Of a DNA stretch of 64,000 nt, positions 4,217 to 47,337 are shown piece by piece; the stretch's first letter is position 1; every line of letters begins with the position of its first letter. The stretch is taken from positions 105,417,970-105,481,969 of the forward strand of contig NC_084798.1 in the NCBI RefSeq assembly GCF_963169125.1, in the 5' to 3' direction. The translations under genes and the position numbers were made by a program. This DNA comes from Humulus lupulus (lineage: Eukaryota > Streptophyta > Magnoliopsida > Rosales > Cannabaceae). The notes under the pieces were generated by a model. The model was not told the DNA's origin, did no database searches, and was given only the letters and a program-made list of their open reading frames with translations.

Positions 4217-4281
4217 CTCTTTAGCACGAAGTGAATACAAAAAACGTACACAGAAAAAGAGCTGACTAACAACTTCCTACA

Positions 4282-9699: not shown

Positions 9700-11965
9700 T
9701 GTAACGCCCTACTTCCTTAGAGCCGTTACTAAGTGAGTTTTAAGACAAAACAGTGCAATGAACTCGCTTACCGAGGTTTTGAAACAAAAGTGTGACTAAT
9801 AAAAGTTAAGGCTGTAATCATTGAAAATGCGTTGACTTAATAAAAACTTCTAGTATTAAATAATTGGGATCCCAAAATAAGGTTTGAAAACTATTTACAT
9901 CTTGAAATGAGTTTACAGTTGATCAATTCTAAAAATCATAGATTATTACAGCCATTTTCAAATAAACCCCCAACCAAAGTAGTCGGGCAGGCCAAACATG
10001 TACGCGTCGCTTCACGCTCTCCGTACTCATGGTTGGTTGACTCAGCCTTTGCCTTTACCTGCAACACAGAGCACCCGTGAACCGAAGCCCAGCAAGAAAA
10101 CTCATGCATTTCATAACATATGCAAAATATACAGTTAATCATATAAGATAATCCACAAATAAGTAAGTCAACCATTAGACTAAGCAAACACGGCCATGCC
10201 GCCCCAGAAGCCTTACCAAAGCCTGGGGTATCGGTCCTCACCGTAAGGATATCACATGTATCCACCGGGCCCTGCCCTGACTATAAGCATCCCATGTGCT
10301 AAGTGTTACTTCCGGCCCCGCTGCCATTCTCGGCCTTGCCGCCCTCGGCCATGCCGTACATTTCATTATAATCATATATAGCACAAACCAAGCAACATTC
10401 AAACAAATACCAATTTATTTAAATCTGCACCCTAACATGTAATGCAATATAGGGCCGTGCCCTGCAATCATTTCATCATGCAATATAGGGCCGTGCCCCG
10501 CAATCACACTATGGGCCCATGCCCTATCCTACGGGTGTTATAGTTTTCTTACCTGTACTCCGAGCTTCCTGATGCACTAAAGCCACGAGCACGGTCCTCT
10601 AGCACGAGCCTCTCTAATAGCCTAGTCACAACACACATAAAACATCCTTCAATACTAACCAACCCAAAAACACTTCCCGGGACCAATCCCGCACTCTCGG
10701 GACCTCTAATTCCCTAAAACAATACATTGGAACCATCCCCCGAGTCCACGGGCAAAAGCCCTAAAAACCAGAATTTTTGCCTGCCAAAATGGCCTAGGGC
10801 CGCGGCGCTCCCCTCAAGGGCCGCGGCGCCCAGCGACTTGCCCCTCTCCTGATGCAACATCGCGCCGCGACGCCCAAGAACAGGGCCGCGACGCTCATAC
10901 GCGAACCCAGATTTTCTGGGTTTTCTCTTGCGTTTTTCCCGAACTTAAACCCCTCCAAATCATCCCAAACAATTACCTAAACCCCAAAACCAATTTCAAA
11001 CTTCAAATAGACCATACATCAACCCATAAACATCATAACCCAACTCAATAACATAATCATACTCAAAATCCACCCATTTGATCTCAGCTTAAGAAATCTA
11101 AACCCATAAACCAAAAACATAAACCAAAGCTTGAAAAGCTTAAACCATGCTTCAAATTCCTAAACCACAACAGAAACAAATCTTAAAATTGCATAGAACC
11201 TTACCTTGAATGAAGAATCCAACCTTAAGCTTCCTTGGTTCATCCCCGAAGTCTTCAAGTTTCAGCTCCCTTCTTCTTCTTCATGCCCTAGCTTTTTCCC
11301 TCTCCTTTTTATTCTCTTCAATTTATCAAAGCATCAAATGACCAAGCCCCCAAACCGTGTACCCCTTAATACCCAGCTGCAATATATCAATTTCCTAGCC
11401 AAATGACCATTTTACCCCTTCATCAAAACCCTTTGCTAACTACACCTCAAGGGCACTCTAGTCCTTTCTCCTATATTGCAATTCTACCATTTCTTTCACC
11501 TAACTTGTTACTCTCAGCAGTAACTAATGGTTACCCAGGTTACTAAATCTCCAATAACCATTACCCGCTAAATCTCAACTTAGTCATAAAATTCCCGAGG
11601 TACCCCTGGGCTCCTCCCGAGCCGGGTATAGAAATCCCGTTGTGACTCTTAAGTTAACTAGCTCTCTAGGACCGTCTCGGCACGTGCATCGCAATAATAA
11701 CACCACACTCACGTGGTACAATTCACATATCAATACAGTTATGCCCAACATGGCCAAAATTACAATTACGCCCTTCTAACACGATCCGGGCCTACATGCA
11801 TACTAATATACATAGTCATGCATCTCAGATAAACAAATAGCCAAATAACATGCTTTAAATCATAACCATGCATTTAACTCATAAAATCACACATAAATCC
11901 CATCGTGCCCTCCTGGCACGATAATCAAGGCCCTTAAGCCTTATTAGCGAATTTGGGTCGTTACA
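9700..11965 (-). repeat. 5' LTR of chromovirus-type family A (copy A1, 2266 bp)
   Basis: Plus-strand ends are TGTAACGCCC and GGGTCGTTACA. It closely matches the solo LTR at 45090-47337. It contains short direct repeats (GGGCCGTGCCC at about 10440-10500, CTCGGCC around 10310-10355) and GC-rich GGGCCGCGGCGC tracts near 10800. Conserved splice-like TTACCT motifs lie at about 10059, 10551 and 11203. The base after the LTR begins CTTTT, its probable target copy. Confidence 0.9.
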
Positions 11966-11970
11966 CTTTT

Positions 11971-12200
11971 CTCAAGCGTCTACTTTGGAGACCCTTTTTT
12001 CAAGCGTCTATTTTTTAGACCCTTTTCTCAAGCGTCTACTTTGGAGACCCTTTTTTCAAGCGTCTACTTTGGAGACCCTTTTTTCAAGCGTCTACTTTGG
12101 AGACCCGTTTCTCAAGCGTCTACTTTGGAGACCCTTTTTGCAAGCATCTACTTTTGAGACCCTTTTCTCAAGCGTCTACTTTTGAGACCCTTTTCTCAAT
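11971..12200. repeat. Minisatellite, about 8 copies of a 28-29 bp unit
   Basis: The core AAGCGTCTACTTTGGAGACC is repeated head to tail, with small T-run length changes and substitutions (ACTTTTGAGACCC in the last copies). It lies between the A1 LTR and the Tat4 gag. There are no unique spacers between units, so this is a simple tandem array. Confidence 0.9.
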
Positions 12201-12299
12201 TTTTGAGGTGATCTCCCCTCGGGTCGGGACTTTCATGGCTAGATGGTCTTCGTTCAATCTCAAACTTGGTCAGCGACCCCTCTAGCATGACGCCCCCTT

Positions 12300-14762: not shown

Positions 14763-16186
14763 TTTGCCATAGGCTCAGGCTTCCTATCTATCTTATCACA
14801 TAAGATGCACCAATAAAATATTGGGATGCACTAGTGTCCATCAATAGATATGCTGAGTTATTAGCCACAGGAAGCTAACCTGACACCATGTTGGAAGTCC
14901 CAACTCTTTCATCACCCTTGGTGAGTGCATAAACATGTGGTGCAGTTCCTATTGGCTTTGGTTGGTCGCTTCCTTCCTTCTGACCATGAGTCAGACAGTG
15001 CCTAGAGAAATGACCTAGAATTACATAGGTGAAGCAATTGTTGTTGTGGCACTCGCCTGGGTGGCGTTGATTGCACTCTTTGCATTGCGACCAATAATTG
15101 TTTTCTCTCTTTGGATGCTTGTTGAAGTTCGAACTTCGGCTTGGTGGCTCCAACCTTCGTTTATTATTTCCACCATAGGGAAACCAAGATTTTCCTGAAG
15201 TATTGGTCTTCCCCACACTTCTATTGCCTTTATATGCAAACCTTCTAGAAGGGCCTCTCTGGTTACTAGAGTTCCTTCCCCAGTCATTAGAGACGTGTGC
15301 TCGTTCTTCATCCCTATAGGGCTCTTTCTTCTCTTGTACCAGCCATGAATCTTGGCGAATTGCTCACTCCAAAACTTCATCATAAGTATTAGGGCTGGTC
15401 TTCCCTATATCCATAAATTGAGCTATCTCCCTTTCCAATCCTTTCATATATTTGCGTACCCATTTGGCTTCATTGTTTACCAGATTCGGAGCAAACCTTG
15501 ATAGTTTGTCAAACTTTCGCATGTACTCCTGTATGCTAGATGACCCTTGGACCAGGTTGGAGAACTCAACCACCTTCCAATCTATCACCGTCTGGTTGTA
15601 GTACTTAGCATTGAACAGGGTCAGGAATTCTTCCCATTCCATTCGTGCAACATAACGTCATTTCTTAGCACTATCCCACCAGATGCGGGTGTCCTCCCTC
15701 AACATATACACCGCACATATTACCTTTTCCCATTTGTTAGCCGCCACAAGGTCAAAGATCCTCTCTAGCATGCTGACCCATTATTTTGCCACCAAGGGGT
15801 CCGAAGTCCCATCAAACACGAGTGGGTTTTGTTTGATAAACCATTCCGAGATTTGTTTTGGCAACTCAACTCTATGGGCATCCGCTGATAGATTTGCTCC
15901 CACTGGTGGGTATTCTTGTGACAGGAATTCTTGTTGTTCGGGAACGTCTTCTCGGGGTGCTGGGGGTGTGGGGTTATGTTGCGCTTCCAGGAATCTCTAC
16001 ATCAATGCCTCGTCCTTCTCAAATCCTCTATCTAAGTTTCCAGAATTTTTTCTAGCTATATCCTTTGTGCTTGGCCTACCCCTCGGCCTCAACCACGACC
16101 TACCTCTTAGTCAACAGCTGCTCTCTTGGCTGGGTCTAGTGGGTTAACAACTCAACCTCTATTGGCTGGGGTGTTAGGAACCATTG
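14763..16186 (-). pseudogene. gag: Degenerate chromovirus gag-protease
   Basis: From ATG 16186 (MVPNTPANRG) the minus strand reads, with several stops, a chromovirus Gag. The best piece is 15642-15364 (MEWEEFLTLFNAKYY), followed in other frames by the zinc knuckle CKECNQRHPGEC...CFTYVILGHFSRHC (about 15090-15000). A degraded protease start follows, with DTSAS in place of the usual D-S/T-G-A-S. It is cut by Tat4 at about 14763, and RT and integrase are absent. Confidence 0.75.
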
Positions 16187-16678: not shown

Positions 16679-18540
16679 GGGGTTGTAAAGACCCAAATTC
16701 ACTAATTAGGCTTAAGGGCCTTGATTAGTGTGCTTGGAGGGCATAATGGGAATTATGTGTGATTTTAATGATTAAGATGCATGACTATGATTTAAAGCAT
16801 GTTATATGACTATGTGTATTACGTTATGTGATAATTATGCTATGTGATTGGTACCGCGTGGGTGTGGTGATATCAATGTGATGCACGTGCCGAGACGGTC
16901 CTAGAGAACTAGATAATGGTAACTGGTGATTTGGTAACTTGTGTAACTGTTAGTGACTATAGAGAGTAACAGGTTTTGTTGGAAAAGTGGTAGAATTGTA
17001 AAGTAAGTAAAAATACAAGTGTGCCCTTGAGGTTTAGTTAGGAAGGGATATTAGTGGAGGGATAAGGTAGTCTTTTGGCAGTGGTATAGATGTCTTTGGC
17101 TGAGGACAAAGGATATACACGATTCTTTTATGCTAAGTATAACTGGAATTAAGACTTGGAAGGCTAGAAAGATCAAGAAGGAAAGGGAGAATCAAGAACC
17201 TAGAAGGCAAAGTGGAAGGGGAGTTAAGTTGTGTTTTTTGAGGCTAGTAAAGGGTTTAAGGGTGTGGAATCAAGCACATATCAAGGTTCATACTGAGCTG
17301 GTTTGTCAAGGAGAAATTCAGTTCAAAGCTTGGATTGGAGGAAGCTCAAGTTGAATATCTGATTGAGGTAAGGGTATTAAATATGTTTGTAATCTCGTAG
17401 CGGTTATGATTTAGGGATTTAGAGGTTTGGTTTGTACTTTTCTCAAGTTTTGGTTTAAGTGTTTGAGTTTGAAATTTAAGTGTGAATTATGAGAATGGTT
17501 GTGTAATTGAGTTAGATTATGATGTTTATAGGTTGTGGTATGGTCTATTTGGGGTTTTGAGTTGGTTTTGGGGCTTAGGTATAAGTTTGGGGTGATTTGG
17601 AGTGATTTGGGTTCGGGAAAAATGCAAGGGAAAAACCCAGATTTCTGGGCTCGCGAAGGAGCGCCGCGGCGCAAGGCTGATTCTAGGCAGAGCAAGTTCT
17701 CTGACTTGCTGGGCGCCGCTACCCTATAGGGCTACGCCGCGACGCTAGGACAATTTCAGAACATAGGATTTTGCAATTTTGAGCCTTTGCTCCAGGGGTT
17801 CGGGGGATATCTTTGGTGCATTGTTTTAGGGATTTGGGGGTCCCGAGAGTGTGGGATTGGTTCTGGGAAATAGTTTTGGATTGATTAGTGACAAGGATGT
17901 TTCATTTGTGTTGTGACTAGGTCTTTGGAGAGGCTCGGGGTAGAGGACCGTGCTCGCGGCTTCGTGGCATCAGAAACTGGTAAATTGAAAGGTAAGAAAA
18001 CTGCACCCGGTTGTATAATTGAGATGGGACTAAGTGCTCCCAGGAATTGTATCGTGTCAATGTTGGTATTATGCCATGGGACATGTAAAAGCGGTCTAAA
18101 AGTACCGTACATGATATTAGCACACAGGGCGCGGTTTGGCCACTGGTAGCCAAGGACAATGGGATAACAGAGGGAGCAGCCTGAGGGCGTTAGCCCTAGT
18201 TATCATTTGTGAACTGTAAATGATATGAATTGACATGCCTAGTATGTGGAATACTTGATTATATTGATTGATGATATGGTTGAGATTATGTAATGCAATG
18301 TGGGATTTTGACTTGTTTGCTAATTGCTTATGCTTTGTTGCTGTTGTGTTTTCTTGCTGGGCCTTGGCTCACGGGTGCTACGTGGTGCAGGTAAGGGCAA
18401 GGGCAAGCTGGACCAAGCTTGAGGTGGAGAGCTCCGAGGTGGAATGTACATAGCCAGCGGTTCGCCCGCCACGGTCGAGGAGTGGACCAGGACAGGGATC
18501 ACCTAACTGCTTGTTTTGCCGTAGTATGGCCGGTTGTTGT

Positions 18541-19130
18541 TGTTATCCATAAAATTAGCATTGGTGACGTGGCAAGTAATCCCTGGACACGTGGCTGACA
18601 CCTGGAGACGTTCTGTTAGAGTATCGACTAGAGGACACATTAGAAGCAGTGTAAGCCTGTCTTACCCGCGACCAGTTTGGTCGATAGTTCCATGTACAAA
18701 GCGACATTTATTGGAAGATCTTTATGAATCCCGAATTTATCTCACACAATCTCCTAAGTATCCAATTATTCAGGAAATAATATCTGTAACAATCTTTTGT
18801 AATCCCCCTTGAGCCTATAAATAGCAAGAGATAGCTCAAGGGAGGGGACTTTTGGCTTTTGATACGTGAGAGATTATAGTAATTATCCTAGGAGTACTGT
18901 ATTGTTCTTGAGAAAGTGGTGAAACTCATTGAACCCTAGTTCTTTGATCACTCTTCTGGTTATTATATCAATATCATTCTAAGTGGATGTAGGTCATTAC
19001 CAGATCCTGGGGCCGAACCACTATAAAATATTGTGTTTTATTTACTTTTGTCATTACGTTCTTCTCTTCTCTTTCATTCATATCAAGCATATTTTGACTC
19101 TGTGTCAGTTGGCCAAATCTTGGGTCAACA
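18541..19130 (+). repeat. Tat2 5' LTR (590 bp)
   Basis: TGTTATCCAT...GGTCAACA. It is the same length as the 3' copy with about 13 substitutions and no indels. The related LTR at 39235-39839 is a solo copy in the opposite orientation. Confidence 0.97.
18816..18823 (+). promoter_or_regulatory. TATA box of Tat2 5' LTR
   Basis: TATAAATA followed by GCAAGAGATAGCTCAAGGGAG, placed where plant LTR promoters usually lie. The same motif is at 29892-29899 in the 3' LTR. Confidence 0.8.
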
Positions 19131-19178: not shown

Positions 19179-21290
19179 ATGGCGAAAGCTGGAAAGAAAA
19201 CTGGACAGGCGGCCGCCGCTGCACCGTCCAACCCGCCACCTCCTCCTCCTGCAAGCATGGCGGAGGATGAGCCACAACTGGACTTTGAGGAGGAGGAAAT
19301 GGGTGATGCAACGCTGAAGAGTACCCTGGGCACGTTGCAGGAAGAGCTGGCTAGTCTGAGAGCCAGTCAGGAGACTGCCGCTGAAGTTATGGCGCAGCAA
19401 CAGAAGGAGATTGAACGACAGCGTGCGGAATTGAGCGAAAGGCAGGCAGAGGTGGACCGCCGCCAGAACGAAGCCATGGCAGCCCTTGAGGCAGCCTTGC
19501 TATTGGCCAGAAATCAGACTGCACCTGCCTCGCAGCCTGACCAACCAGTGAATGGGCCACCCCAGAGGGGTCCTAATCCGAGCCCACCGATCCAGCCTTC
19601 GAGTCCGCAAAGGCCCGAGCAGCCCAGATGCCCCATGACGATGTCCCACAGGATCCTGAGGCACAGCCACCATCCCAAGCTGCTCGGGGTAATCCCCCGC
19701 AACAGAGGCAGAATAGGGCTGAGCATCAGCCTCGCAGCCCTAGACGTCGTAGGGATGATGGGCCGAACCTACCGAATAGAGGTCAGTACCCTCCTGGCAA
19801 CAGGAGAGACTCAGAGTTAGGCTCTGCGGTCCGAGGCCCCCCACGACACGATAATGCACGGGGACACCACGACCAGCGCAGGCCACCCTCTAACGCTCGG
19901 GATGGTTCAGCCAGGAACGGACATCGAGGGAACAATCGATCTCACCATAGCCGGTCGAGGTTCAGAGATGGCCACGGATACAATGAGGCCGACTCAGGCA
20001 AAGGAAATGCCGGTGGGAGAAGTGGAGAAAGAGGTAAAGGCAGGAGCCAGGTACCTCAAGATGACCAACCAAATAGACAGGATGCTGGGGGGCAGCCCAG
20101 ACAGAATAATGTCTTCAACCGGCTCGGGGGTAGCGAGCAGCGGAGAAGAGGAGAGGACCTGAGAGATGTACTCAATGATCGCTGTGAGAGACACGGCGAG
20201 AACGTCCTCCCGGCAACAGAGGCCACAACGATTCCTACCGCAGTGCAGGCCCAGATAGACGCCCTCAACCAGGCAGTGCAGCATCTGGTCGGGGGAAGGA
20301 CTTCATACATCGACCACGATAGGAGGAAAGGAACTCCTTTCGTACAAAGGATAGCTAACGCCGAAACTCCCAGCAAATTCAAGATGCCCACGCTTCCAAA
20401 CTTTGACGGGTATGGAGACCTAGTCTCGCACGTTAAAAAGTTTGAAATTCAGATGGACATTCAGAAAGTGTCCAAAGACGCTCGGTGCAGGATCTTCCCT
20501 GCAACACTTTCTGAAGCTGCGCAGGAGTGGTTCTTCAAGTTCCCTCCTGCGAGCATTGTTTCTTGGGAAATGTTCGTACGGGAGTTCTACGGACAATTCT
20601 ATGCTGGTCACGTGCACCCAACCAAAGCAAACCAGCTAGTCGAAATTCGCCAGCAGGACGGGGAGTCAGTGAAGGATTACGTCCAGCGCTTTATGCGAGC
20701 GGCGGCTGGAGCAAAAATAGTAGGAGATGAAGGCAAGATGATGGCCATTACCGCAGGGGTTAAACGTTGCTCTCCCCTCTGGAAAAGTCTCCGAAAATTT
20801 CTTAGACCGAGCTGACCGCTACATCAAGCTCGAAGAAGCCATTTCTGATGATGGAAAACCCTCGAACAAGGGTAAGAAGGTTGCCGAACCCGCCAAAGCC
20901 GCCAACGGTTCCAAACCTAATGGCAACGGCAAAGGCAACGGGAACGGCAACGGTAATGGCAAGAATGGTGGAAAACGGCCGTATAACGAGCCTTCCACCT
21001 CCGACAACAAATGAGCAAAGGGTAATCGTTATGAACCTCGGTTCACTAACTACACTGCCCTCGTTGAGTCTCGGGGAGAGGTTTACCAGGCCACAAGCTC
21101 CAGTGTGCCTTACAAGAAACCTGGACCCATTCGAAAGGACATTTCGAAAAGAGACACTACCAAGTTCTGTCGTTACCATAACGACTACGGACATGACACT
21201 AATGAATGCAACCAGTTAAAAGACGAAATCGAGTTCCTTATTAGACAAGGACACTTGAGAAGATACGTACGGACCTCGGGAAATTCCTAA
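19179..21290 (+). pseudogene. gag: Tat2 gag, two frameshifts and one stop
   Basis: ATG 19179 (MAKAGKKTGQ) begins an N-terminus with a Pro run and a heptad-like coiled coil (QQQKEIERQRAELSERQAE). The frame shifts near 19610 into an Arg/Asp/Gly-rich linker and the Gag domain (AAQEWFFKFPPASIVSWEMF, about 20510-20580). It shifts again near 20800, where FLDRADRYIKLEEA continues in a new frame. There is a TGA at 21012-21014, then the knuckle CRYHNDYGHDTNEC and a stop at 21288. All pieces are recognisable and none is functional as it stands. Confidence 0.88.
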
Positions 21291-22091: not shown

Positions 22092-23371
22092 GGTGTTGCC
22101 CAAAGTGAGGATGGAGATTTGGATCCTCGCTTTGGGGATTTTGAAGAAAATGTTGGACCCATCGAGGACCTGGAGGAGGTCCAACTCGACAAAGAAGACC
22201 CAACCAGAGTCATAAAAGTTGGGAAAAACTTAGAGCGTACCACGAAGCACGCACTGGTGGAATTCTTGCAAGAGAACCAGGAAGTTTTCGCCTGGTCGCA
22301 TAAAGACATGGTTGGGATAGATCCTACAGTAATCAGCCATGTCCTGAATATAGACAAGACCTTTCCACTTGTGCAACAAAAAAGAAGGCTGCTCGATAAA
22401 GACAGATCAAGAACCTTAAAAGAAGAAGTCGAAAGGCTAAAGGAGAATGGATTCATAAGGGTGGCTTTTTATCTGTCATGGGTCTCCAATCTGGTGCTGG
22501 TCCCCAAGCCTAACGGCAAGTGGCAGACCTGTGTGGATTTTACAGACCTCAATAAAGCCTGCCCAAAAGACTGCTTCCCACTCCCAAGGATCGACCAGCT
22601 GGTCGATGCTACTGCAGGGCACGAGGTCCTCTCATTCATGGATGCATATTTGGGCTATAACCAGATTAACATGCATCCCCCTGATGAGGATCACACCAAC
22701 TTTCGGACCGATACGGGCTTGTATTGCTACAGAGTAATGCCCTTCGGACTGAAAAACGCAGGTGCGACTTACCAACGGCTAGTCAACCACATGTTCAAGG
22801 AACAAATCGTTGTAAACATGGAGGTATATGTGGATGACATGCTTGTAAAATCTAAGAAGGCAGAAGGGCATGTGAGGGATTTACAAGAGTGCTTTAATGT
22901 GTTAAACAAGTACCAAATGAAATTAAATCCCCTCAAGTGTTCCTTTGGAGTCGGATCAAGGAAGTTTTTGGGGTTTATCGTAAATTCAAGAGGAATCGAG
23001 GCCAACCCCGACAAGATAAAGGCCCTGATCGACATGAAGTCGCCAGAAAGGATCAAAGATGTACAAAGTTTAACCGGAAGAATCGCAGCCCTAAGCAGAT
23101 TCATTTTAAAATAAACAGACAAGTGCGCCCCATTCTTCAATCTACTTAGGGGAATAAAAAGTTTGAGTGGACAGAACACTGCGAGCAAGAATTTCAGGCG
23201 CTGAAAGCTCATATGGCACAGCCTCCCATCCTATCAAAGCCGATCGAAGGAGAAACTTTGTTTATTTATCTGGCGATTACTGAAGTTGCTGCCAGCGCGG
23301 TGCTAGTGTGAGAGGAAGAAGGTGCACAAAAAGCAGTCTAATATGTCAGCAAGAGACTGATCGGGGCAGAA
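22092..23371 (+). pseudogene. pol: Tat2 reverse transcriptase and start of RNase H
   Basis: RT fingers and palm motifs are intact: VDFTDLNKACPKDCFPLPRI, SFMDAYLGYNQI, MPFGLKNAGATYQRL and the catalytic YVDDMLVKS. The frame ends in TAA at 23112. A single-base shift near 23150 restores FEWTEHCEQEF, leading into the first RNase H, which carries TGA at 23309 and TAA at 23339. It follows protease in frame, as in other Ty3/Gypsy pol genes. Confidence 0.92.
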
Positions 23372-24532
23372 TTGAGATATCCGCCAATCGAGAGGTTAGC
23401 ATATTGCTTGATCCTTGCCTCTAGAAAGCTGCGCCCCTACTTCCAAGCCCATCCTATCACAGTTCTAACTGATCAGCCCCTTCGGCAAGTCCTCCAAAAA
23501 CCCGAGGCGGCTGGGCGATTGTTAAAATGGGCAGTCGAGTTAGGGCAGTTCGACATAACCTATTCACCACGAGCAGCAGTAAAAAGACAAGTCTTAGCCG
23601 ATCTTATTGCAGAGTTCACCGAACTCCCAGACAGTGAGCAGTGCGAACAGCCTGAAGCGCCCGAACCTCAAGACAAAACTCCTTCGTGGAAGTAATTCAC
23701 AGATGGTTCATCCAACGAATCCCACGCTGGAGCGGGAGTGATATTGATAACGCCGGAAGGGCATCGATTTCACTGCGCCATCAGGTTCAACTTCACTGCA
23801 TCAAACAATGAAGCAGAATACGAAGCACTCCTCGCTGGATTGAGAATAGCAAAAGATATGAGCATAAAGACGCTTGATATCTACAGTGATTCACAGCTGG
23901 TGGTGAATCAGGTCCTAGGAGAATATCAAGCACGAGGTTTGAAAATGGTAGCCTACTTAAATAAAACAAAGGACCTGCTAGCCCAGTTCACGAAGTACAC
24001 CCTCCAACAGATCCCGCGAGATCAGAATTCAAACGCGGATGCCTTAGCCAAACTCGCGAGCGTAAAGGATGCTGACACTTTGAACATTGTGCCAGTAGAA
24101 AGACTGAGTAAGCCGAGCATACAAGCAGCTGAGTCCAGTATGGAGATTCGAATGGAGAATACATGGATGGCGCCTTACTTGGTGTATCTGACAAATGGTG
24201 CGCTACCAACAGATAGGAACAAATCCAGAACTCTACAAAGACGAGCTGCTAGGTACATACTGGTCGATGGTGTTATGTATCGAAGAGGATTCTCAATTCC
24301 ACTACTCAGGTGCGTTACACCAGAAAAGGCTAAGGAACTCATGAAGGAGGTGCATGAAGGCTTCTGCGGGGATCACGCTGGGGGGCAGAGTTTGGCAAAA
24401 AAGATTCTAAGGCAAGGCTACTTCTGGCCAACGATGAACGAGGATTCGATGGAGTATGTACGAAGATGTGATAAGTGTCAAAGGTTCTCCAAGATCCCAC
24501 GAGCAGCTCTAAACGAACTGAAGCAGATGTAG
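23372..24532 (+). pseudogene. pol: Tat2 first RNase H end, second (archaeal-type) RNase H and integrase zinc domain
   Basis: The first RNase H ends with ITVLTDQPLRQVLQK. After an acidic linker and TAA at 23693, a second RNase H fold reads FTDGSSN...GAGVILITPEG, NNEAEYEALLAGLRIA, LDIYSDSQLVVNQV and DQNSNADALAKLA. A duplicated RNase H of this type is a hallmark of the Tat lineage. The integrase HHCC finger follows (HEGFCGDH ... CDKCQ), with TAG at 24530. Confidence 0.9.
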
Positions 24533-24538
24533 AGCCCG

Positions 24539-25398
24539 TTGCCTTTTACAGTGTGGGGGATAGATTTAATTGGATCCCTACCTATAGGGAAAGGCGGAGT
24601 AAAATACGCAGTTGTGGCAGTTGATTACTTCACCAAATGGGCCGAAGCTGAACCACTCGCAACCATCACGACCAAGAAAGTTCTTGACTTCGTCATCAAG
24701 AACATTGTATGCAGATATGGTTTGCCCAGGAAGATAGTTTCAGACAACGGGACCCAATTTGATAGCGACTTATTCACCGATTTCTGCGAGAGGCATGGAG
24801 TTATTAAAAGCTTTTCTTCAGTTGCACACCCCCAAGCAAACGGGCAGGTCGAAGCCGTAAACAAGACTCTTAAAGACACCCTGAAGAAAAGACTTGAAGA
24901 AGCTAAAGGAGTGTGGCCAGAGCAGTTGCCTGAAGTCCTGTGGTCGTATAGAACGTCTCACCGAACAGCAACAGGACATACTCCATTTTCCCTAGCCTAT
25001 GGGTATGAGGCCATGTTGCCTGTTGAGTTAGATCCCCCCTCACATCAGCGTTTGACTTACGACCAAGATCAGAATAGCCATCTAATGATGGAGTCCCTAG
25101 ACTCAATCGATGAGATACGAGAGAAATCTCAACTCCGAGTTGCTGCATACAAGCAAAAATTCGCCCGGTACTTTAACTCCAAAGTTAAAGAAAGAAAATT
25201 CAACGTCGGTGACTTGGTGTTGCGACGAGTTTTCTTAAATACCCGCGACCCTACTGCTGGAGTGCTCGGACCCAATTGGGAAGGACCTTACCAAATTGAA
25301 GAAGTCTTCATCCAGGCACATACAAACTTGCACGCTTAAATGGAGATCTCGTTCCCCGCTATTGGAATGGAGAACACCTGCGTAAGTATTATCAGTAA
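24539..25398 (+). pseudogene. pol: Tat2 integrase core and C-terminus
   Basis: It inserts element cDNA into the genome. The catalytic Asp-Asp-Glu residues are visible in WGIDLIGSLP...VDYFTKWAEAE, IVSDNGTQF and HPQANGQVEAVNKTL. The C-terminal part has FNVGDLVLRRV and GPNWEGPYQIEEV. A shift near 25310 misreads the last 30 codons; the other frame ends ...KYYQ with stop at 25396-25398. It continues the 23738-24532 frame across one TAG. Confidence 0.9.
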
Positions 25399-26142
25399 AC
25401 AACCCTTTTTAAAGGACTGGCTTGTATTAATTTTTTTTTAATTTTTACAAGTTTTGCAAAGAGGGTTAGCCACGTTGTATGGATAACTGCTCGTATATGT
25501 AAGGTTCTATTATAGAATCACTCGTAAAGACATGTTTAGTCCATTTTTAATACGAGATTATAAGGGACTGTGCGCAGCCAGTCATTCTTGCCAACCTTTG
25601 TGAATTTACATTTACAAGTATTTGTTCATTACGTGTGTTGTTTTGCTATATTACAAGTATCATTTTTCCGCACGAACAGGAATGTTCGAACAGGCCATGG
25701 TCAGGGCAAGTGACCAAGGACCTAAAGCTCCTCGATCACTTGGGGGGCATATAAGGCACATCGATAGCAAAGCATACTCTCAAGGTATGTAAACACATGA
25801 ACAAAATGAAGTGAAAGCATGCTACAGTACTTAGAGTATTTTTCAAAATTTATGTTTTGTTAAATCATGCCAAAGTACTATGCTAAGTTCGGTCATACGG
25901 GCAAATGTTATAATAAATAAAAATATTATAGCATCAAGATTTAAGCTTTTACACCGCAAGCATCACTGCTTGGATGTAACTGTTCGAGTAAAGGAAGAAA
26001 GGGTTTACTGCCCATGCAGCAAAGTTTAAAAAGAAATTATTGTCTTTACATCATGACCCGTGGGTCGTATAGCCAAAAAGAAAGAAAAAATTAATGAGAA
26101 AGTTTAAGAGGCATTTGGGGCCGGAGGGTCCTGGGCAGCATC
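25399..26142. other. Spacer between Tat2 pol and the end of the antisense gene
   Basis: AT-rich, no coding signal on either strand. The two convergent genes must terminate here, but I cannot place a polyadenylation site. Confidence 0.5.
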
Positions 26143-26718
26143 CTAGTTGGTCGCGTCCTCGACAACTTCTTCTTCTTCCACACCAACGATGCTTGGAGAG
26201 GTAGGGATCCTCAATCTTGCCTCCTCCTCGGCCAGTTGGGCGGTGCAGTGAGCCAACTCAGTTGCCCTGACTTCCTCCGAAAGATAGCTGAAGTCGGCAC
26301 CCTGATTATGTTTCCAGAAGTTGTAGAAACATCGGAGCGTCGTCCTCTTGTAATTTTCAAGATTTTTGGAGTTGTCAAGCACCAGCTGCTTCACCTTGCC
26401 TTCAAGAGTGACAATAGCCTCGTCCTTGGACTTGAGTGTCTCTCCCAGATGCTTGATCTCGCGAAGATGGGTTTGGTTGGAATCTCGATACTCCTGCCTC
26501 AACTTTACTGCGGCATCTTTTGCAGCTTCAGCCTCTGACAATTTGGTCACCGCGGCATCCCTTTCTCGAGCCCTTGCCTCCAACTCCTTGGCATGCCTAG
26601 CCTCTGCAGCGGAAAGCTCCTCAGCCGCCTTCACTTGATGCCTCTCAGTGGCCTTTGCCTTGGCCTGCTCGATGGAAGCCTGGATACGGGTACGAGCAGT
26701 GATAGCAGATAGCAAGGC
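26143..26718 (-). CDS. Antisense gene of Tat2, coding exon 4 (coiled coil)
   Basis: It opens after acceptor TTGTTCACAG in phase 0 (ALLSAITARTR) and ends with TAA-class stop at 26143. It encodes a strongly charged, Ala/Glu/Lys/Arg-rich helix (KAAEELSAAEARHAKELEA) typical of a long coiled coil, then a patch with FYNFWKHNQGADFSYL and an acidic tail. It would be the C-terminal 191 residues. Similar helical tails occur in plant gypsy-type transposon proteins; a specific role is unknown. Confidence 0.8.
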   Translation of the reverse strand, partial: ALLSAITARTRIQASIEQAKAKATERHQVKAAEELSAAEARHAKELEARARERDAAVTKLSEAEAAKDAAVKLRQEYRDSNQTHLREIKHLGETLKSKDEAIVTLEGKVKQLVLDNSKNLENYKRTTLRCFYNFWKHNQGADFSYLSEEVRATELAHCTAQLAEEEARLRIPTSPSIVGVEEEEVVEDATN

Positions 26719-26795
26719 CTGTGAACAAAGGAAAGAGTTAGAGCCTGCTATGAAGAATAAAAGACTAAGGCTTAAAAAAGTGAAGAAGTACTCAC

Positions 26796-27250
26796 ACTGG
26801 AGATTTCATTCAGGGCCCTGTTCAGAACCTGGTCGGCCCCCATGTTTTCAGCCTCGACCATTGCATCTCTGACACCGTCACCTTTGCCAATGCGGTCAAG
26901 GCGATCCCTGGCTGATCGAAGGGTGCGGCTCATGAGTTTGGCCCCGAGAGCTTCTTCACGGGTAATTTCCTCTCTAGTGGGCGCAGCCGGAGGATTTGGT
27001 GGGGTAGGAGGAGTCTGCTTCTCAGTAGGAGCTGGTGGATGAGTTTGCCCCGTTGGCCCAGGAGTTTGCCTCGTTGGCCCAGGAGTTTGCCCAGATGGCG
27101 CGTCCTTGGGAAGGTCTTCTGTTTGACCCTTCTTGGCTGGAGGGCCTCGGCTGGATTCGCCAGTTCTCCTCTTGGATCTCCGCTGGAGTTGGGGAACCTC
27201 CTCTTCCTCCTCGGCCTGGTACATGTCAAAGATATTGGGAGTGGCCATAT
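26796..27250 (-). CDS. Antisense gene of Tat2, coding exon 3 (low complexity)
   Basis: It is bounded by acceptor TTGCATGCAG and donor AGT|GTGAGT. It begins ..DMATPNIFDMYQAEEEEE and continues with basic and proline/threonine/glutamine-rich repeats (three near-copies of RQTPGPT), then a charged segment EEALGAKLMSRTLRSARDRL. The upstream phase (1 nt) and downstream phase (0) match the neighbouring exons. The linker repeats may vary between copies. Confidence 0.75.
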
Positions 27251-27341
27251 CTGCATGCAAGAAAACACAGGAAACTAATAAGAATAAGAGGCAGATAAAA
27301 ATATATTATATGCAACAGAAGAAAGGCAACAAAGTGAATAC

Positions 27342-27863
27342 CCGAGCTACAACTACTGGTCGCTACACTATTGACTCTATTAGTCATATACTCATTATCT
27401 GGCATGAAGAAGTCTGGCCCTAATTTTGGAGTATACGTAAAATTGCCTTCCCCGTCGAACAAATGACAGGGAATTGGCAAACCATTTAAAAGTAAAATAG
27501 TGTTACCATTATCATCAGAGGACTCTGCCAAGTCCACAGCTGGCTCTTTAGCCATTTGTTTCCCCTTGCCTTAGGGAGCAGAAGGCCTTTCTGCGGAAGG
27601 ATTGGCCGTGGGCTCCCTAATAGTAATCCCCGTTGGCCTCCTCCTCCGAGGAGACACGGGAGGTTGCTGCTCGGGAACCCCCTCGGCAGTGGCTTCGTCC
27701 ACCACGGACCCTCTAGTTTCATGGCGAGGAGCCAGGAGGCCAGACTGCCTCAAGTTTTCTTCAGTCACCAGGATCTTGACGCTTTTTGCTGCGTCGGACA
27801 TCCTGGCCAGAGTATTAGACCTCAACACCATGGCTGGTGTTGGGGTCGGACGTAACCAAGGGT
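27342..27863 (-). pseudogene. Antisense gene of Tat2, coding exon 2 with premature TAA
   Basis: Acceptor CTTTTCAG at 27864 and donor CTCGG|GTATTC at 27341 keep frame with both neighbours. It reads DPWLRPTPTPAMVLRSNTLA, a basic proline-rich stretch, then TAA at 27571-27573, and continues in the same frame (GKGKQMAKEPAVDLAESSDD) to the donor. The TAA is the only break I find in the whole antisense frame. The first residues after it (GKGKQ) favour a simple point mutation over an exon end. Confidence 0.75.
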
Positions 27864-27944
27864 CTGAAAAGCAGATTACAGTTTGAGAAAAACGAAAGGA
27901 GACACCTTGAGTAAAAGTATCGACCAGTCAGAAACGGTGCTTAC

Positions 27945-28770
27945 CTCCTCGTGCGAAGGGCAGGTTGTTGCTGGATATGTCCGAGGTAAGGAAGTACTCC
28001 TTATTATACTGCCCCACATTCGAGATGTGCGCTGTGTCACTCAGAAATGTTCGATTGGTTTCCTGGTGACAAAAATGGAAGAAACCCGTTCCGTGTTGTT
28101 GCGGGTTGGACTTGAGGTCGAAGAGATAGTTGACCTCGTGGGGTGAAGGTTCTGGCCATTTCATAAGTTTATACAGGATATAGAGTGCGGCCAGCATTCC
28201 ATATCCGTTTGGAGTTATTTGGAAGGGGGCGACACCAAAATAGTTGGCCACTCCCACAAAAAAGGGATGAAGAGGGAGACAAGCTCCCGCCTCAATATGA
28301 TACCGAGACCAGGCGCCGTTGACACCTCCGGGGAGGTTAGCCCTCTGGTCTGCGGCAGGTTGTATAATGGAAACCCCTGTGAGGGGGAATCTCCTGAAGC
28401 AGTTAGCAATCATTCGAAGAGTTACTGAACTAGATGGGGAAGTATACCACTCGATATCAGGCAAGTTATGATGGCGAGGGCTGGCCCTAATTTGGATATT
28501 AGGGTCAGGAACAAGATTTTCTCGACCACTGGTCAAGGGAGCCCTTGCCGGTGAATCAGGCCGGGTAGGAGAATTTGGGATGTTTTCAGATTCGGGTCTT
28601 TTCTTGCCTGAAGATTTGGAACGGGCCATTGAAGGAGAAGGATGGGGTCTGGAAGAAGATCGCGAAAAAGGGATCTCGTGGACACGGTCAGCTGGTTGAG
28701 CTTCTCCCTCGAGCAGTTGGGCGAGAAGGTCGTCGTCAATAGGCCTTTCACCTCCCCACAAATCTGGCAT
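27945..28770 (-). CDS. Antisense gene of Tat2, coding exon 1 (gypsy-type transposon domain)
   Basis: I chose ATG 28770 (MPDLWGGERPID); the next codons upstream overlap a good acceptor (TTCTGTATGCAG, exon starting 28776), so an earlier start would be intronic. A Ser/Pro/Arg-rich segment is followed by a globular domain at about residues 115-235 (SRYHIEAGACLPLHPFFVGV, FQITPNGYGMLAALYILYKL). From memory this matches Pfam PF04195, putative gypsy type transposon. The exon ends at donor GAG|GTAAGC (27945), leaving one base of phase. Such antisense ORFs lie between pol and the 3' LTR in some Tat-lineage elements. Confidence 0.82.
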
Positions 28771-29203
28771 TAAAGTCTGCATACAGAAGAATGGGGAGGT
28801 GAGGATAGAAAACTTTTAAAACCTTTTTAGAATAACGCTGGTCGAGTATAAAAATTAAGTTTTTATACAACAACATTCTAACAAAAAGCTAAATCTTTCT
28901 ACAACGAATAGTTTGAAAAACGGATCAAAGGGTGAAAGTAAAATAGTTTTTCTGAGGAAGCTTTTTCAACTCCCCTTAGGGTGGGAAAAATTTATTTTTC
29001 AACTAGCCTAAAGATCGAATTTTTACTTCGATTTTACGTCCTAAAAAGCATGATCTCTGATTTTAAACTAACTCGTAACCCTATTTCGCCTACAAAATAT
29101 TCTGTCTACAAGCGTCTCGAACCAGAAGCAGATAAACTCAAATAGTACACAGTCAGAAGCATGCATCGCAAAAAATTAGAAGCGTGGGAACTCGAAAACT
29201 TAC

Positions 29204-29376
29204 CAAGAAAAGTGATCGTGGAGATGGAAGAAAGATCTTCAGAGATCAAGAAGCTCTCGAATGGGGTCCTGAAAGTGCAGACGGAGCGGTCTTCAGGAAT
29301 GTTAAGGGCTCTGGATTTTAGGTTTTCTTGTGAAGACGATGGCGTGCGTAAAAAGAAAATAAAGGCTTCGAAGGTC
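29204..29376 (-). other. Leader exon of the Tat2 antisense gene
   Basis: It lies just downstream, on the minus strand, of the TATA box at 29377-29385 and ends at the strong donor CTTG|GTAAGT (29204/29203). It contains no ATG on the minus strand, consistent with a 5' UTR. The intron to 28777 would be about 427 nt, AT/T-rich, with acceptor TGTATGCAG. Confidence 0.6.
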
Positions 29377-29385
29377 TTATATAAG
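29377..29385 (-). promoter_or_regulatory. TATA box of the antisense gene
   Basis: Minus strand CTTATATAAG, nearly palindromic. It sits about 240 bp inside the 3' LTR and about 600 bp upstream of the first coding exon. Confidence 0.55.
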
Positions 29386-29601
29386 TTTGTTTCTGATAAT
29401 AAAAAGTATAATCATTAGTTTCCCTTTTTCAAAGTATGGGGAAGCGGGATGGCCGTCGAAATCTTTTCTGGGGAACCGAAAGGACGTGATTAGACAGAGG
29501 TAGGTTGCTTTTTTCGAGAACACACGAAGGGTTCTGACACGTCAGGTGGGGTTACCGAAGAGTCGTTCGTCCAAAAGTTTATTTACTGCTCGTGATAAAT
29601 A

Positions 29602-29616
29602 AACTTGGGGGGAAAA
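29602..29616 (+). other. Tat2 polypurine tract
   Basis: AACTTGGGGGGAAAA directly before the 3' LTR start, in the position needed for plus-strand priming. Confidence 0.85.
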
Positions 29617-30206
29617 TGCTATCCATAAAATTAGCATTGGTGACGTGGCAAGTAATCCCTGGACACGTGGCTGACACCTGGAGACGTTCTGTTAGAGTAT
29701 CGACCAGAGGACACATTAGAAGCAGTGTAAGCCTGTCTTGCCCGCGACCAGTCTGGTCGATAGTTCCGTGTACAAAGCGACATTTATGGGAAGATCTTTA
29801 TGAATCCCGAATTTATCTCACACAATCTCCTGAGTATCCGATTATTCAGGAAAGAATATCTGTAACAATCTTTTGTAATCCCCCTTGAGCCTATAAATAG
29901 CAAGAGATAGCTCAAGGGAGGAGACTTTTGGCTTTTGATACGTGAGAGATTATAGTAATTATCCTAGGAGTACTGTATTGTTCTTGAGAAAGTGGTGAAA
30001 CTCATTGAACCCTAGTTCTTTGATCACTCTTCTGGTTATTATATCAATATCATTCTAAGTGGACGTAGGTCATTACCAGATCCTGGGGCCGAACCACTAT
30101 AAAATATTGTGTTTTATTTACTTTTGTCATTACGTTCTTCTCATCTCTTTCATTCATATCAAGCATATTTTGACTCCGTGTCAGTTGGCCAAATCTTGGG
30201 TCAACA
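29617..30206 (+). repeat. Tat2 3' LTR (590 bp)
   Basis: TGCTATCCAT...GGTCAACA, followed by target copy GTTGT. The second base pair differs from the 5' LTR (TGC against TGT). TATAAATA is at 29892. Confidence 0.97.
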
Positions 30207-30443
30207 GTTGTATATAAACCTTGAGACTTTTGTAAACAGTGTTTGAACTTAATATTTTTGGGATCCCATGTAATAGATAATACTTTTTAATGAAAATGTG
30301 GCTTTTGAGACCAAAACACTTTTAACCCTAGTTCCTTTATAGTTTAAATGACACGAATTTTATTTAAATGACTTGATTAGCAAGTCTGGCACTTTATAAA
30401 CACACAGTGTAGCGGTTTTGGCTATCCAGGGCGTTACAGGGGT

Positions 30444-39234: not shown

Positions 39235-39839
39235 TGTTGACCCTGATTTTGGTCAACTGACACGGAGTCAAAAATGCTTGATGTGGACATATATGTTAGA
39301 ATGAATGTAATGACCAAAACAATAAAGCACACAAGAATTTATAGTGGTTCGGTCCTAGAAACTGGTAACAACCTATGTCCACTTGATCTATTATTGATAT
39401 GGGATTCAAAGGAGTGATCAAAGAACTAGGGTTCTATGAGTTTCACCAACCTCTGAATAATAAACAATATATTGTAATGTATTAGCTCTAATTCTCTCGT
39501 AAATCTATACTCTCAAGTAATTCAAAAGCAAAAGTCCCCTCCCTTGAGCTACCCTTTTCTTATTTATAGGCTCCAGGAGGGTTACAGGAATCTATTACAG
39601 ATATTATTTCCCAAATAATCAGATTCTCAGGAAATCATGGGAGACAATCTCGGATATGATCATAACTGCACAAGATTTTCTCCAAATATAGTGAGTATAC
39701 GATCAAGCTGGTCGTGCATAACGTTTGAGCGTTGTGCCAGGAAATCTTTCTGGTTGATGGTCAAACAAGACTTCCGCCAGGTGTCAACCACGTGTACTAA
39801 ACGCCTGCCACGTCACCCATACCTATTTTTTGGATAACA
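39235..39839 (-). mobile_element. Solo LTR of the Tat2 family (605 bp)
   Basis: The plus strand runs TGTTGACCCT...TTGGATAACA, flanked by perfect GTTAC copies (39230-39234 and 39840-39844). The minus strand shares the TGTTATCCA start, GTGACGTGGCAGG and the GGGTCAACA-type end with the Tat2 LTRs. The ORF at 39637-39837 is fortuitous. Confidence 0.9.
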
Positions 39840-45089: not shown

Positions 45090-47337
45090 TGTAACGCCCT
45101 ACTTCCTTAGAGCCGTTACCAAGTGAGTTTTAAGACAAAACAGTGTGCAAAGAACTCGCTAACCGAGGTTTTTAAAATGAAAGTGTGACTAATCAAAAGT
45201 TAAGGATGTAATATTTGAAAATACGTTGTTTCGATAAAAGCTTCTAGTATTAGACATTTGGGATCCCAAAATAAAGTTTGAAAACTATTTACATCTTGAA
45301 ATAAGTTTACAGGTGATTAGTTATAAAAATCATAGATTATTACAGCCATTTCTCGAATAAACCCCCAACCAAAGCAGTCGGGCAGGCCAAACATGTACGC
45401 GTCGCTTCACGCTCTCCATACTCATGGCTGGTTGACTCAATCTATGCCCTTACCTGCAACACAGAGCACCCGTGAGCCGAAGCCCAGAAAGAAAACTCAT
45501 GCAGTTCATAACATATGCAAATTATACAGTTAATCATATCAGATAGTCCACAGATAAACAGGTCAACCATTAGACTAAGCAAACACGGCCATGCTGCCCC
45601 AGAAGCCTTACCAAAGCCTGGGGTCTCGGTCCTCACCGTAAGGATATCACATGTATCCACTGGGTCCTACCCTGACTATAAGCATCCCATGTGCTAAGTG
45701 TTACTTCCGGCCTCGCTGCCGTTCTCGGCCTTTCGCCGTTCTCGGCTCCATTGCCGTTCTCGGCCTTGCCGCTCTCGACCTTAGCCGTTCATTGCACTAT
45801 AATCACACATATAATACATTTCGAAATAATCATTCAAACATATAATAATTCATTTAAGGTTATACATTAGCACATAATACAATCTAGGGCCATGCCCTGC
45901 AATAACACTATGGGCCCATGCCCTATTCTCGGGTGCTACAGTTTTCTTACCTGTATCCCGAGCTTCACAGTGCACCAAAGTCACGAGCACGGTCCTCTAT
46001 CTCGAGCCTCTCCAAAAACCTAGTCACAACACATATAAAACACTCTTTAATATTAACCAATCTAAAACCATTTCCCGGGACCAATCCCACACTCTCGGGA
46101 CTCCCAAATTCCTAAAACAATTCATCGGAAACATCCCCCAAACCCCCGGAGCAAAGGCTCAAAATTGTAAATTTTCATGTCCTGAAAAAGGCGTAGCCGC
46201 GGCGCTACCCGCAAGGGCCACGACGCCCAGAGAAGTCAGAGAGTTCCCCTGACTGCAAATAGCCTCGCGCCGCGGTGCCCAAGAACAGGGCCGCAGCGCT
46301 CCTTCGCGAACCCAGAAATTTGGGTTTTTCCTTTGCATTCCCTCTAGCCAAAACACTCCCAAATCATCCCAAACTCACACCTAAGCCCCAAAACCAACTC
46401 AAAACTCCAAATAGACCATACAACAACCCATAAACATCATAACCCAGCTCAATAACACAATCATACTCAAAATCCACCCATTTGATTTCTAATTTCAACA
46501 ACTCAACCCAAAAATTCAAAAACTTAACTCAAGCTTTAAATTCCTCAAACCAAAACAGAAACAAGCCTTAAGTGCACATAGAATCCTTACCTTGAATGAA
46601 GAATCCAACCCTAAGCTCCCTTGCTTCTTCTCCTAAGCCTCAAAATTTCAACTCCTTCTACACCTCTTCTTCTTCTTCTTGCCCTAGCTTTTCTTCTAGC
46701 TTTTCTTCTCTTCCATTTATATCAAAGCCAACATATATCCCAATGCCTAAACCGTGTACCCTATAATCCCAGCTGAAAATTGTCTCAACCCTCTGCCAAA
46801 TGACCATGTTACCCCTCCAAATAATCCTTTCCTAAGTAAGCCATCAAGGGCACTCTAGTCCTTTCATTTATATTTCAATTCTACCATTTTCCAACTAAAC
46901 TTGTTACCCACAGCAGTAACTAATGGTTACCCAGGTTACTTAATCACCAATAACCATTACCCGCTAAGTCTTAATTTAACCATAACAATTCCCAAGGTAC
47001 CCCTAGGCTCCTCCCGAGCCGGGTATAAATCCCGTTGTGACTTTTGAGTAAACTAGCTCTCTAGGACCGTCTCGGCACGTGCATCACAATAATAACACCA
47101 CACTCACGTGGTACAAATCACATAATACAATTATCACATATATGCCCTCAGCGGGCTAAAATTACCAATTTACCCCTATCATACAAACGGGGTCCACATG
47201 CATATTTATTTCACCTAAACATGCATACTAACCACATATTCATTAAATTCACATAAATTAATGCAATAAAGCAATTATTGCCCTCTTGGCACACTAATCA
47301 AGGCTCCAAGCCTTATTAGCAAATTTAGGTCGTTACA
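45090..47337 (-). mobile_element. Solo chromovirus-type LTR A2 (2248 bp)
   Basis: TGTAACGCCC...AGGTCGTTACA with perfect CATGT copies (45085-45089 and 47338-47342). It is closely related to A1 at 9700-11965. The block 45712-45782 has four copies of a GCCGTTCTCGGC-like unit, whereas A1 has fewer. It inserted into Copia LTR E. Confidence 0.95.

What the first reader, a model, noticed from the sequence alone, without database searches (positions are those of the whole stretch)
26143..29385. Spliced antisense gene inside a Tat/Retand-like retrotransposon
Seen: between pol and the 3' LTR of Tat2, the minus strand holds four coding exons (28770-27945, 27863-27342, 27250-26796, 26718-26143). All three coding introns begin GT and end AG, and the phases (1, 1, 0) match at each junction. 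The spliced length is 2379 nt, exactly 793 codons, with one internal stop. The N-terminal domain resembles the putative gypsy type transposon family (PF04195, recognised from memory) and the C-terminus is a coiled coil. Known: antisense ORFs have been reported in this lineage. Inference: here it is a full multi-exon gene with its own promoter, converging on pol.
Basis: partly seen in the sequence, partly recalled or inferred. Interest (0 to 1): 0.88.

Follow-up and report, generated by a model that had tools for sequence, protein, structure and literature searches.

The report
Spliced antisense gene in plant retrotransposon
A jumping gene in what is probably the hop genome carries, on its reverse strand, a multi-exon gene for a protein of unknown role that selection has preserved across its copies; such reverse-strand genes are known in this lineage, but here the pieces look like exons of one gene.

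Summary
In detail: four minus-strand exons with GT-AG introns and matching phases lie between pol and the 3' LTR of a complete Tat/Retand insertion. Corrections: a probable 5'-UTR intron (29203-28777) precedes the start codon; exon 2 has two in-frame donors 165 nt apart, and which is used is open; the window copy is decayed.

The family gene is real. Hop proteins P0002 and P0003 are reproduced exactly by splicing related loci of this genome. Selection acts on the antisense frame (dN/dS 0.18; shared variants enriched in synonymous changes, p = 9e-6, shifted frames not enriched). Intron 1 is present in two subfamilies and precisely absent in two.

Antisense Transposase_28 ORFs are described as typical of Retand (PMC11963269), and maize Grande has an antisense gene with its own promoter (PMC7264820). 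Added here: TRP28 and coiled-coil ORFs are exons of one gene, with a conserved stem-loop around the leader's acceptor and AUG. Expression and function are not shown; a nuclear regulatory role is inferred.

The parts
18541..19130 (+). 5' LTR (590 bp), preceded by target-site duplication GTTGT at 18536-18540
   Evidence: 13 of 590 positions differ from the 3' LTR; blastn
29617..30206 (+). 3' LTR (590 bp), followed by GTTGT at 30207-30211; polypurine tract just before it (about 29597-29616)
19577..20815 (+). gag ORF (stop to stop)
   Evidence: PF03732
22092..25339 (+). pol in broken pieces: RT 22092-23114, RNase H 23342-23695, second RNase H (RVT_3) and integrase zinc domain 23696-24532, integrase core 24533-25339; a change of frame and in-frame stops separate the pieces
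   Evidence: ORFs; Pfam
29377..29383 (-). candidate TATA box TATATAA of the antisense gene, inside the element and outside the LTR
   Evidence: identical in 36 of 39 copies
29204..29350 (-). probable non-coding leader exon (5' end inferred from the TATA position)
   Evidence: inference
28777..29203 (-). probable 5'-UTR intron, 427 nt
   Evidence: donor GT in 37 of 39 copies, acceptor AG in 39 of 39; every ATG between the donor and the start codon lies inside it
28749..28801 (-). stem-loop with arms CACCTCCCC and GGGGAGGTG enclosing the leader-intron acceptor and the start codon
   Evidence: fold -30.8 kcal/mol, z -4.26; exact pattern in 60 of 70 held loci, some overlapping each other and two not covering this place; longer stem in two other subfamilies
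27945..28770 (-). coding exon 1, start codon 28770-28768; Transposase_28 (PF04195) match at 28299-28186
   Evidence: Pfam
27864..27944 (-). intron 1, 81 nt, phase 1; present in the P0001 locus (76 nt), absent in the P0002 and P0003 loci
27507..27863 (-). coding exon 2 up to the early donor; in-frame stop of this copy at 27573-27571
27342..27506 (-).
   Evidence: equivalent introns in P0002/P0003 loci
26796..27250 (-). coding exon 3, with a 21-nt in-frame tandem repeat at 27041-27099 and a basic patch RRSKRR
   Evidence: 39 of 40 length differences among copies here are multiples of 3
26719..26795 (-). intron 3, 77 nt, phase 0; equivalent in place and phase in the P0002 and P0003 loci
26143..26718 (-). 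coding exon 4, charged and probably coiled coil; TAG at 26145-26143, where 36 of 37 other copies with data have a sense codon

Best explanation
The region is the accessory gene of a Tat/Retand Ty3/gypsy element, written on the strand opposite to gag-pol. It is one spliced gene: a probable leader exon, a leader intron ending just before the start codon, then coding exons for an N-terminal Transposase_28 region, a low-complexity linker with basic patches, and a C-terminal probable coiled coil. Mechanism proposed: RNA polymerase II starts at an internal promoter near 29380, between the gene and the 3' LTR, runs toward pol, and the pre-mRNA is spliced (inferred). Because the genomic RNA of the element is the other strand, these introns are not removed from it and are copied into every new insertion (inferred from established retrotransposon biology). 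The protein probably enters the nucleus and acts on the element's own DNA or RNA as a trans-acting regulator (inferred). Shown here: structure, conservation of splice sites, purifying selection on the protein. This copy is decayed; related copies with all exons open exist.
For: Exon chain verified. PF04195. Hop RefSeq proteins P0002 and P0003 equal, at 732 of 732 and 752 of 752 residues, the spliced product of loci in this genome, with introns of phases 1 and 0 matching window introns 2 and 3. Pol lies downstream of P0002 on the opposite strand, 72-83% identical to the window's in three pieces. dN/dS 0.179 over 732 codons between P0002 and P0003; shifted frames show no excess of synonymous change. 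Variants in at least 3 of 40 sequences: 81 of 172 synonymous, private ones 180 of 627, p = 9e-6; shifted frames p = 0.35 and 0.50; without C-to-T and G-to-A changes 31 of 49 against 89 of 346. P0002 subfamily, 20 copies: 72 of 117 against 106 of 242, p = 0.002. Splice sites of introns 1-3 kept in 36 to 39 of 39 copies; none has lost one of these introns except one copy truncated before introns 2 and 3. 5 of 37 complete copies are open throughout. Precedents: PMC11963269, PMC7264820.
Against: No RNA evidence was available. The per-exon test is not significant for exon 2 core (p = 0.19) or exon 3 (p = 1.0). In exons 1, 2 core and 4 together, 12 of 16 length differences from the window copy are not multiples of 3, and 12 of 37 complete copies are shifted, which I take for decay after insertion. 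PF04195 in P0002 and P0003 falls below the Pfam cut-off (24.7 and 23.5 against 26.2). Between the window and P0002 synonymous sites are saturated, so no ratio could be had. Both structure predictions were poor (mean pLDDT 39.9 and 43.0), so no fold supports a function. Three protein searches found four relatives. DNA binding and a nuclear role are not tested. The UTR intron and TATA box rest on sequence only.
Confidence: 0.8

Rival explanations
1. Separate antisense ORFs: the TRP28 ORF and the coiled-coil ORF are independent genes or ORFs, as an ORF finder would list them, and are not spliced together.
For: The survey of Retand elements predicted ORFs with ORF Finder and counts TRP28 and Smc-like antisense ORFs as ORFs, without mention of introns (PMC11963269).
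Against: P0002 and P0003 each run from the TRP28 part into the coiled coil and equal the spliced loci exactly; the window's junction 1 falls where P0002 has one uninterrupted exon; exon 4 holds no methionine at all in frame, yet shows constraint in that frame.
Confidence: 0.08
2. Regulation by antisense RNA: the minus-strand transcript matters chiefly as RNA (double-stranded RNA with the sense transcript, silencing or its evasion), and the protein is secondary.
For: Proposed for this class of ORF in PMC7264820. The 165-nt segment is conserved beyond what its weak coding signal explains and a stem-loop is kept at the acceptor and AUG.
Against: Synonymous sites change far faster than non-synonymous ones between P0002 and P0003, so the protein is what is kept over most of the length.
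Confidence: 0.07
3. A captured host gene carried in reverse orientation.
For: The gene has spliceosomal introns and a TATA of its own, as a captured genomic gene would.
Against: Each of the four families searched in this genome has many copies, the P0002 copy lies in the same place in its element, and no similarity of TRP28 outside transposable elements is reported (PMC11963269). I made no search of named plant genomes.
Confidence: 0.03
4. Chance: fortuitous ORFs and GT-AG pairs in a decaying element.
For: This copy has an internal stop and a broken pol.
Confidence: 0.02

Closest known systems
Antisense TRP28 (PF04195) ORFs of Retand elements (Vicient 2025, PMC11963269; parts 1-3 of 5 and passages read)
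   Same: Same lineage, place (between pol and 3' LTR), orientation and domain. The pol-to-3' LTR stretch here, about 4.28 kb, lies within the reported 2.9-6.6 kb.
   Different: The paper describes ORFs; words beginning with intron do not occur in its main text, and splic- and exon- only in its reference list. Here the TRP28 part and the coiled coil are exons of one gene, with a probable leader intron. Humulus does not occur in its main text (supplements not seen).
[quoted passage not shown] 2013, seen only as described in PMC7264820)
   Same: Antisense accessory gene in the long 3' internal region with its own upstream promoter; nuclear product.
   Different: Its exon structure could not be read here (paper not seen); sequence relation to the window gene not tested.
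ORF2 of pvRetro families of common bean (Gao et al. 2014, PMC4093653, passages read)
   Same: ORF opposite to the retrotransposase, between it and the 3' LTR; some with an SMC-like domain.
   Different: Reported as ORFs; the word intron does not occur in the main text. Sequence relation not tested.
HBZ of HTLV-1 (nuclear antisense gene per PMC11963269; the rest recalled)
   Same: Works alike at most by analogy: antisense gene of a retroelement with a nuclear product (that it is spliced and has a coiled coil is recalled).
   Different: No sequence relation tested or expected; HBZ is a bZIP protein (recalled).
Spliced sense-strand intron of Ogre elements (PMC6317226, passages read)
   Same: A Tat-clade element that uses splicing.
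   Different: There the intron is in the sense transcript between gag-prot and RT; here the introns are on the opposite strand.

Membership tests
Retand lineage (Tat clade, Ty3/gypsy) | RT, RNase H, second RNase H, integrase in this order | tested here: met
   PF00078, PF17917, PF13456 with PF17921, PF00665 in order; the order is given for Ogre and Retand in PMC6317226
Retand lineage (Tat clade, Ty3/gypsy) | Long pol-to-3' LTR region (2.9-6.6 kb) | tested here: met
   25340-29616, about 4.28 kb (range from PMC11963269)
Retand lineage (Tat clade, Ty3/gypsy) | Antisense ORF with PF04195 in that region (97% of clusters in PMC11963269; Transposase_28 in 23% of Retand elements in PMC6317226) | tested here: met
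   29.1 bits, cut-off 26.2
Retand lineage (Tat clade, Ty3/gypsy) | Reverse transcriptase groups with Retand in a tree | not tested
   No reference RT set was fetched
Retand lineage (Tat clade, Ty3/gypsy) | LTRs with a target-site duplication, usually 5 bp in plants | tested here: met
   GTTGT on both sides
Transposase_28 (PF04195) proteins | Profile match above the curated cut-off | tested here: met
   Window exon 1 above it; relatives P0002 and P0003 just below it
Antisense accessory genes with own promoter (Grande gene23 type) | Transcription from a promoter upstream of the antisense gene | not testable with these tools
   Only a conserved TATATAA
Antisense accessory genes with own promoter (Grande gene23 type) | Nuclear protein | not testable with these tools
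   Basic patches RRRR and RRSKRR; localisation not predicted

The most novel reading that the evidence does not exclude
The antisense gene of Retand elements is a regulated, alternatively spliced gene. Its stem-loop, enclosing the leader intron's acceptor and the AUG, gates splicing or translation, and two conserved in-frame donors of exon 2 make a short and a long nuclear protein. Antisense placement is what lets a retrotransposon keep spliceosomal introns through every round of reverse transcription; gain or loss of intron 1 between subfamilies then records rare exchange with a spliced antisense RNA.
Probability: 0.2. Interest if true: 0.75.

Novelty: new variant of a known kind. Interest (0 to 1): 0.5.

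Why it matters
Antisense TRP28 ORFs mark an abundant plant retrotransposon lineage and have no known role. If the separately listed ORFs are exons of one conserved gene, that gives the right protein to test, tells annotators to look for spliced antisense models, and offers a natural case of spliceosomal introns preserved inside an RNA-copied element because they lie on the opposite strand.

Tried and rejected
Relatives were sought in viral contigs and plasmids: none. Three protein searches gave four relatives; in two of them only the roughly 8,000 candidates sharing most words were scored, so scarcity of relatives is not shown. Structure prediction failed twice (mean pLDDT 39.9 and 43.0), so no fold search was made. 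Rfam: no match in 25000-30300. Literature: one search returned no paper; one search returned one (PMC12786077), of which 12 of 17 places were shown and do not describe this gene.

Better scores for the early donor (297, 288, 240 against 262, 261, 172 bits) reflect that the three hop proteins lack the 55 residues. The P0001 locus keeps both donors exactly 165 nt apart with the segment open in frame, and within the window family the segment is the least variable of 13 at A/T sites (16 of 3,900 against 850 of 70,521, p = 5e-7). Its coding signal is weak (pS 0.465, pN 0.257; p = 0.048 on rounded counts; 10, 18 and 20 changes at codon positions 1, 2, 3; 7 shared variants, p = 0.66), so it could be a regulatory stretch.

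The stem-loop, by eye, shows one-sided changes in the 20 of 21 P0002- and P0003-type sequences that the script listed; in one (L056) most of the left arm is altered. No covariation was found. Whether intron 1 was gained or lost is unresolved for want of an outgroup.
Full report
What is there. The window holds a complete Tat/Retand-type insertion. LTRs of 590 bp at 18541-19130 and 29617-30206 differ at 13 of 590 positions and are flanked by the same 5 bp, GTTGT. Between them lie gag (PF03732), RT, RNase H, a second RNase H and integrase on the plus strand, with pol broken into pieces by a change of frame and in-frame stops. About 4.28 kb separate pol from the 3' LTR, and the antisense gene fills most of it.

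The exon chain. That stop lies at 27573-27571; 1 of 39 other copies has a stop codon there and 1 is gapped, so it is a defect of this copy. Exon 1 matches PF04195 Transposase_28 at 29.1 bits against a cut-off of 26.2. The C-terminal exon is rich in charged residues (30 basic, 34 acidic of 192) and without a methionine; in the low-confidence model of P0002 the matching part is a long helix.

The leader. Upstream of the start codon there is a TATATAA at 29383-29377, a donor at 29203 and an acceptor at 28777, six bases before the ATG. Every ATG between that donor and the start codon lies inside this interval, so the proposed spliced leader would have none before the gene's own. Among 39 copies the TATA box is intact in 36, the donor in 37, the acceptor in 39 and the ATG in 39. 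In the P0002 relative an acceptor touches the ATG (20 of 20 copies) and a similar donor lies 1.38 kb upstream in the one copy read. This leader intron is an inference from sequence.

The host. Protein P0002 of Humulus lupulus is reproduced exactly, 732 of 732 residues, by splicing locus L048 of this genome. Contig C4 has the same length, 251,527,947, as the contig recorded for hop protein P0003; contig C1 is 6 kb shorter than the one recorded for P0001 and P0002.

Independent gene models. P0002 and P0003 are RefSeq entries found by sequence search; what evidence RefSeq used for them I could not see. Each equals the spliced product of a locus in this genome with two introns, of phases 1 and 0. 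These match window introns 2 and 3 in phase and position, intron 2 within about eleven residues by eye. P0002's element has pol on the opposite strand just downstream, 72 to 83% identical to the window's in three pieces, so the arrangement is the same. Of the 61 best-scored P0002-type copies (of 78,109 first-look candidates) 47 have no stop in the first 444-445 codons matched. Outside hop one relative was found, P0004 of Heracleum sosnowskyi, 41% identical over 79 residues of exon 1.

Intron 1. In the P0002 and P0003 loci the region across window intron 1 is one exon. In the P0001 locus, which is 65% identical in DNA to the window (674 of 1,035), intron 1 is present at the same place, 76 nt long; exon 1 of that copy has an in-frame stop. 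So a precise gain or loss separates two pairs of subfamilies. Of the 39 near copies, 39 hold the leader intron and intron 1 and 38 hold introns 2 and 3; the one exception is truncated.

Exon 2 donors. The three hop proteins lack the extra 55 residues, but the P0001 locus has both donors at the same distance and the segment open. The segment is the least variable at A/T sites; at other sites it is not exceptional. I leave the choice open and think both forms may be made.

Selection. Between P0002 and P0003, 732 codons give dS 1.05, dN 0.19, ratio 0.18, and 0.13 to 0.30 in four parts; shifted frames show no excess of synonymous change. Between the window and P0002 synonymous sites are saturated. 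Among 40 sequences of the window family, variants present in at least three are synonymous in 81 of 172 cases, private variants in 180 of 627, p = 9e-6; the two shifted frames give p = 0.35 and 0.50; without C-to-T and G-to-A changes the counts are 31 of 49 and 89 of 346. Variants found in exactly two sequences were dropped, and the copies are the closest ones, not a random sample. By exon the test is significant for exons 1 (p = 0.004) and 4 (p = 0.0002), not for the exon 2 core (0.19) or exon 3 (1.0). In 20 copies of the P0002 subfamily the result is 72 of 117 against 106 of 242, p = 0.002; one shifted frame gives p = 0.04 in the opposite direction, the other 0.78. In exon 3, 39 of 40 length differences from the window copy are multiples of three, 34 of them one 21-nt step; in exons 1, 2 core and 4 together 12 of 16 are not. 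Of 39 copies 37 are complete; under the early-donor model without the terminal codon 5 are open throughout, 20 keep the overall frame but have stops, 12 are shifted. I read this as protein kept while the family was active and copies decaying after insertion.

Stem-loop. CACCTCCCC and GGGGAGGTG enclose the leader acceptor and the AUG. The window stretch folds at -30.8 kcal/mol, z -4.26; the opposite strand folds nearly as well (-29.5, z -4.36), so the strand that uses it, if any, is not decided. The exact pattern is found in 60 of 70 loci then held, some of which overlap in sequence and two of which (L068, L069) do not cover this place. In the two other subfamilies the stem is longer. Changes seen are one-sided, so covariation does not prove it.

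How it most likely works. Shown: structure, conservation, selection on the protein. Inferred: transcription from an internal promoter toward pol, splicing, nuclear entry, and action on the element. The published closest cases are the TRP28 ORFs in 97% of recently active Retand clusters (PMC11963269; parts 1-3 of 5 read, and passages) and Grande gene23, with its own promoter and a nuclear product (PMC7264820; parts 1-2 of 3 read; the original paper was not seen). That review calls for a look at spliced antisense transcripts. In my searches (listings only, apart from the papers named) I met no description of a multi-exon Retand antisense gene, but the library lacks most subscription papers.

Noticed in passing
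28749-28801 (minus) and L048, L070: Inverted repeat CACCTCCCC...GGGGAGGTG enclosing a splice acceptor and start codon, extended to about 20 pairs in two other subfamilies.
   Followed up: partly
27342-27506: 165-nt segment less variable at A/T sites than the rest of the region among 40 copies, with a 25-nt stretch identical to the P0001 locus next to the late donor.
   Followed up: partly
533-4276 (minus): Remains of another retrotransposon: gag (PF03732) and part of a reverse transcriptase (PF00078) in one frame, separated by a stop.
   Followed up: no
15364-15657 (minus): Gag fragment (PF03732) of a further element beside the Retand insertion.
   Followed up: no
9801-11729 and 45195-47124: Pieces repeated in the same orientation about 35.4 kb apart, 78-94% alike: probably two copies of one repeat family.
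   Followed up: no
11935-12242: Tandem array of a 28-nt unit.
   Followed up: no
39315-39653: Stretches 75-77% complementary to the Retand LTR: an older relative or solo LTR in the other orientation.
   Followed up: no
L048 and L068, upstream of the P0002 start codon: Many copies of a GGTCCGATCGGACC-like motif, as a repeat array, in and beyond the putative leader intron of the P0002 relative (seen by eye).
   Followed up: no
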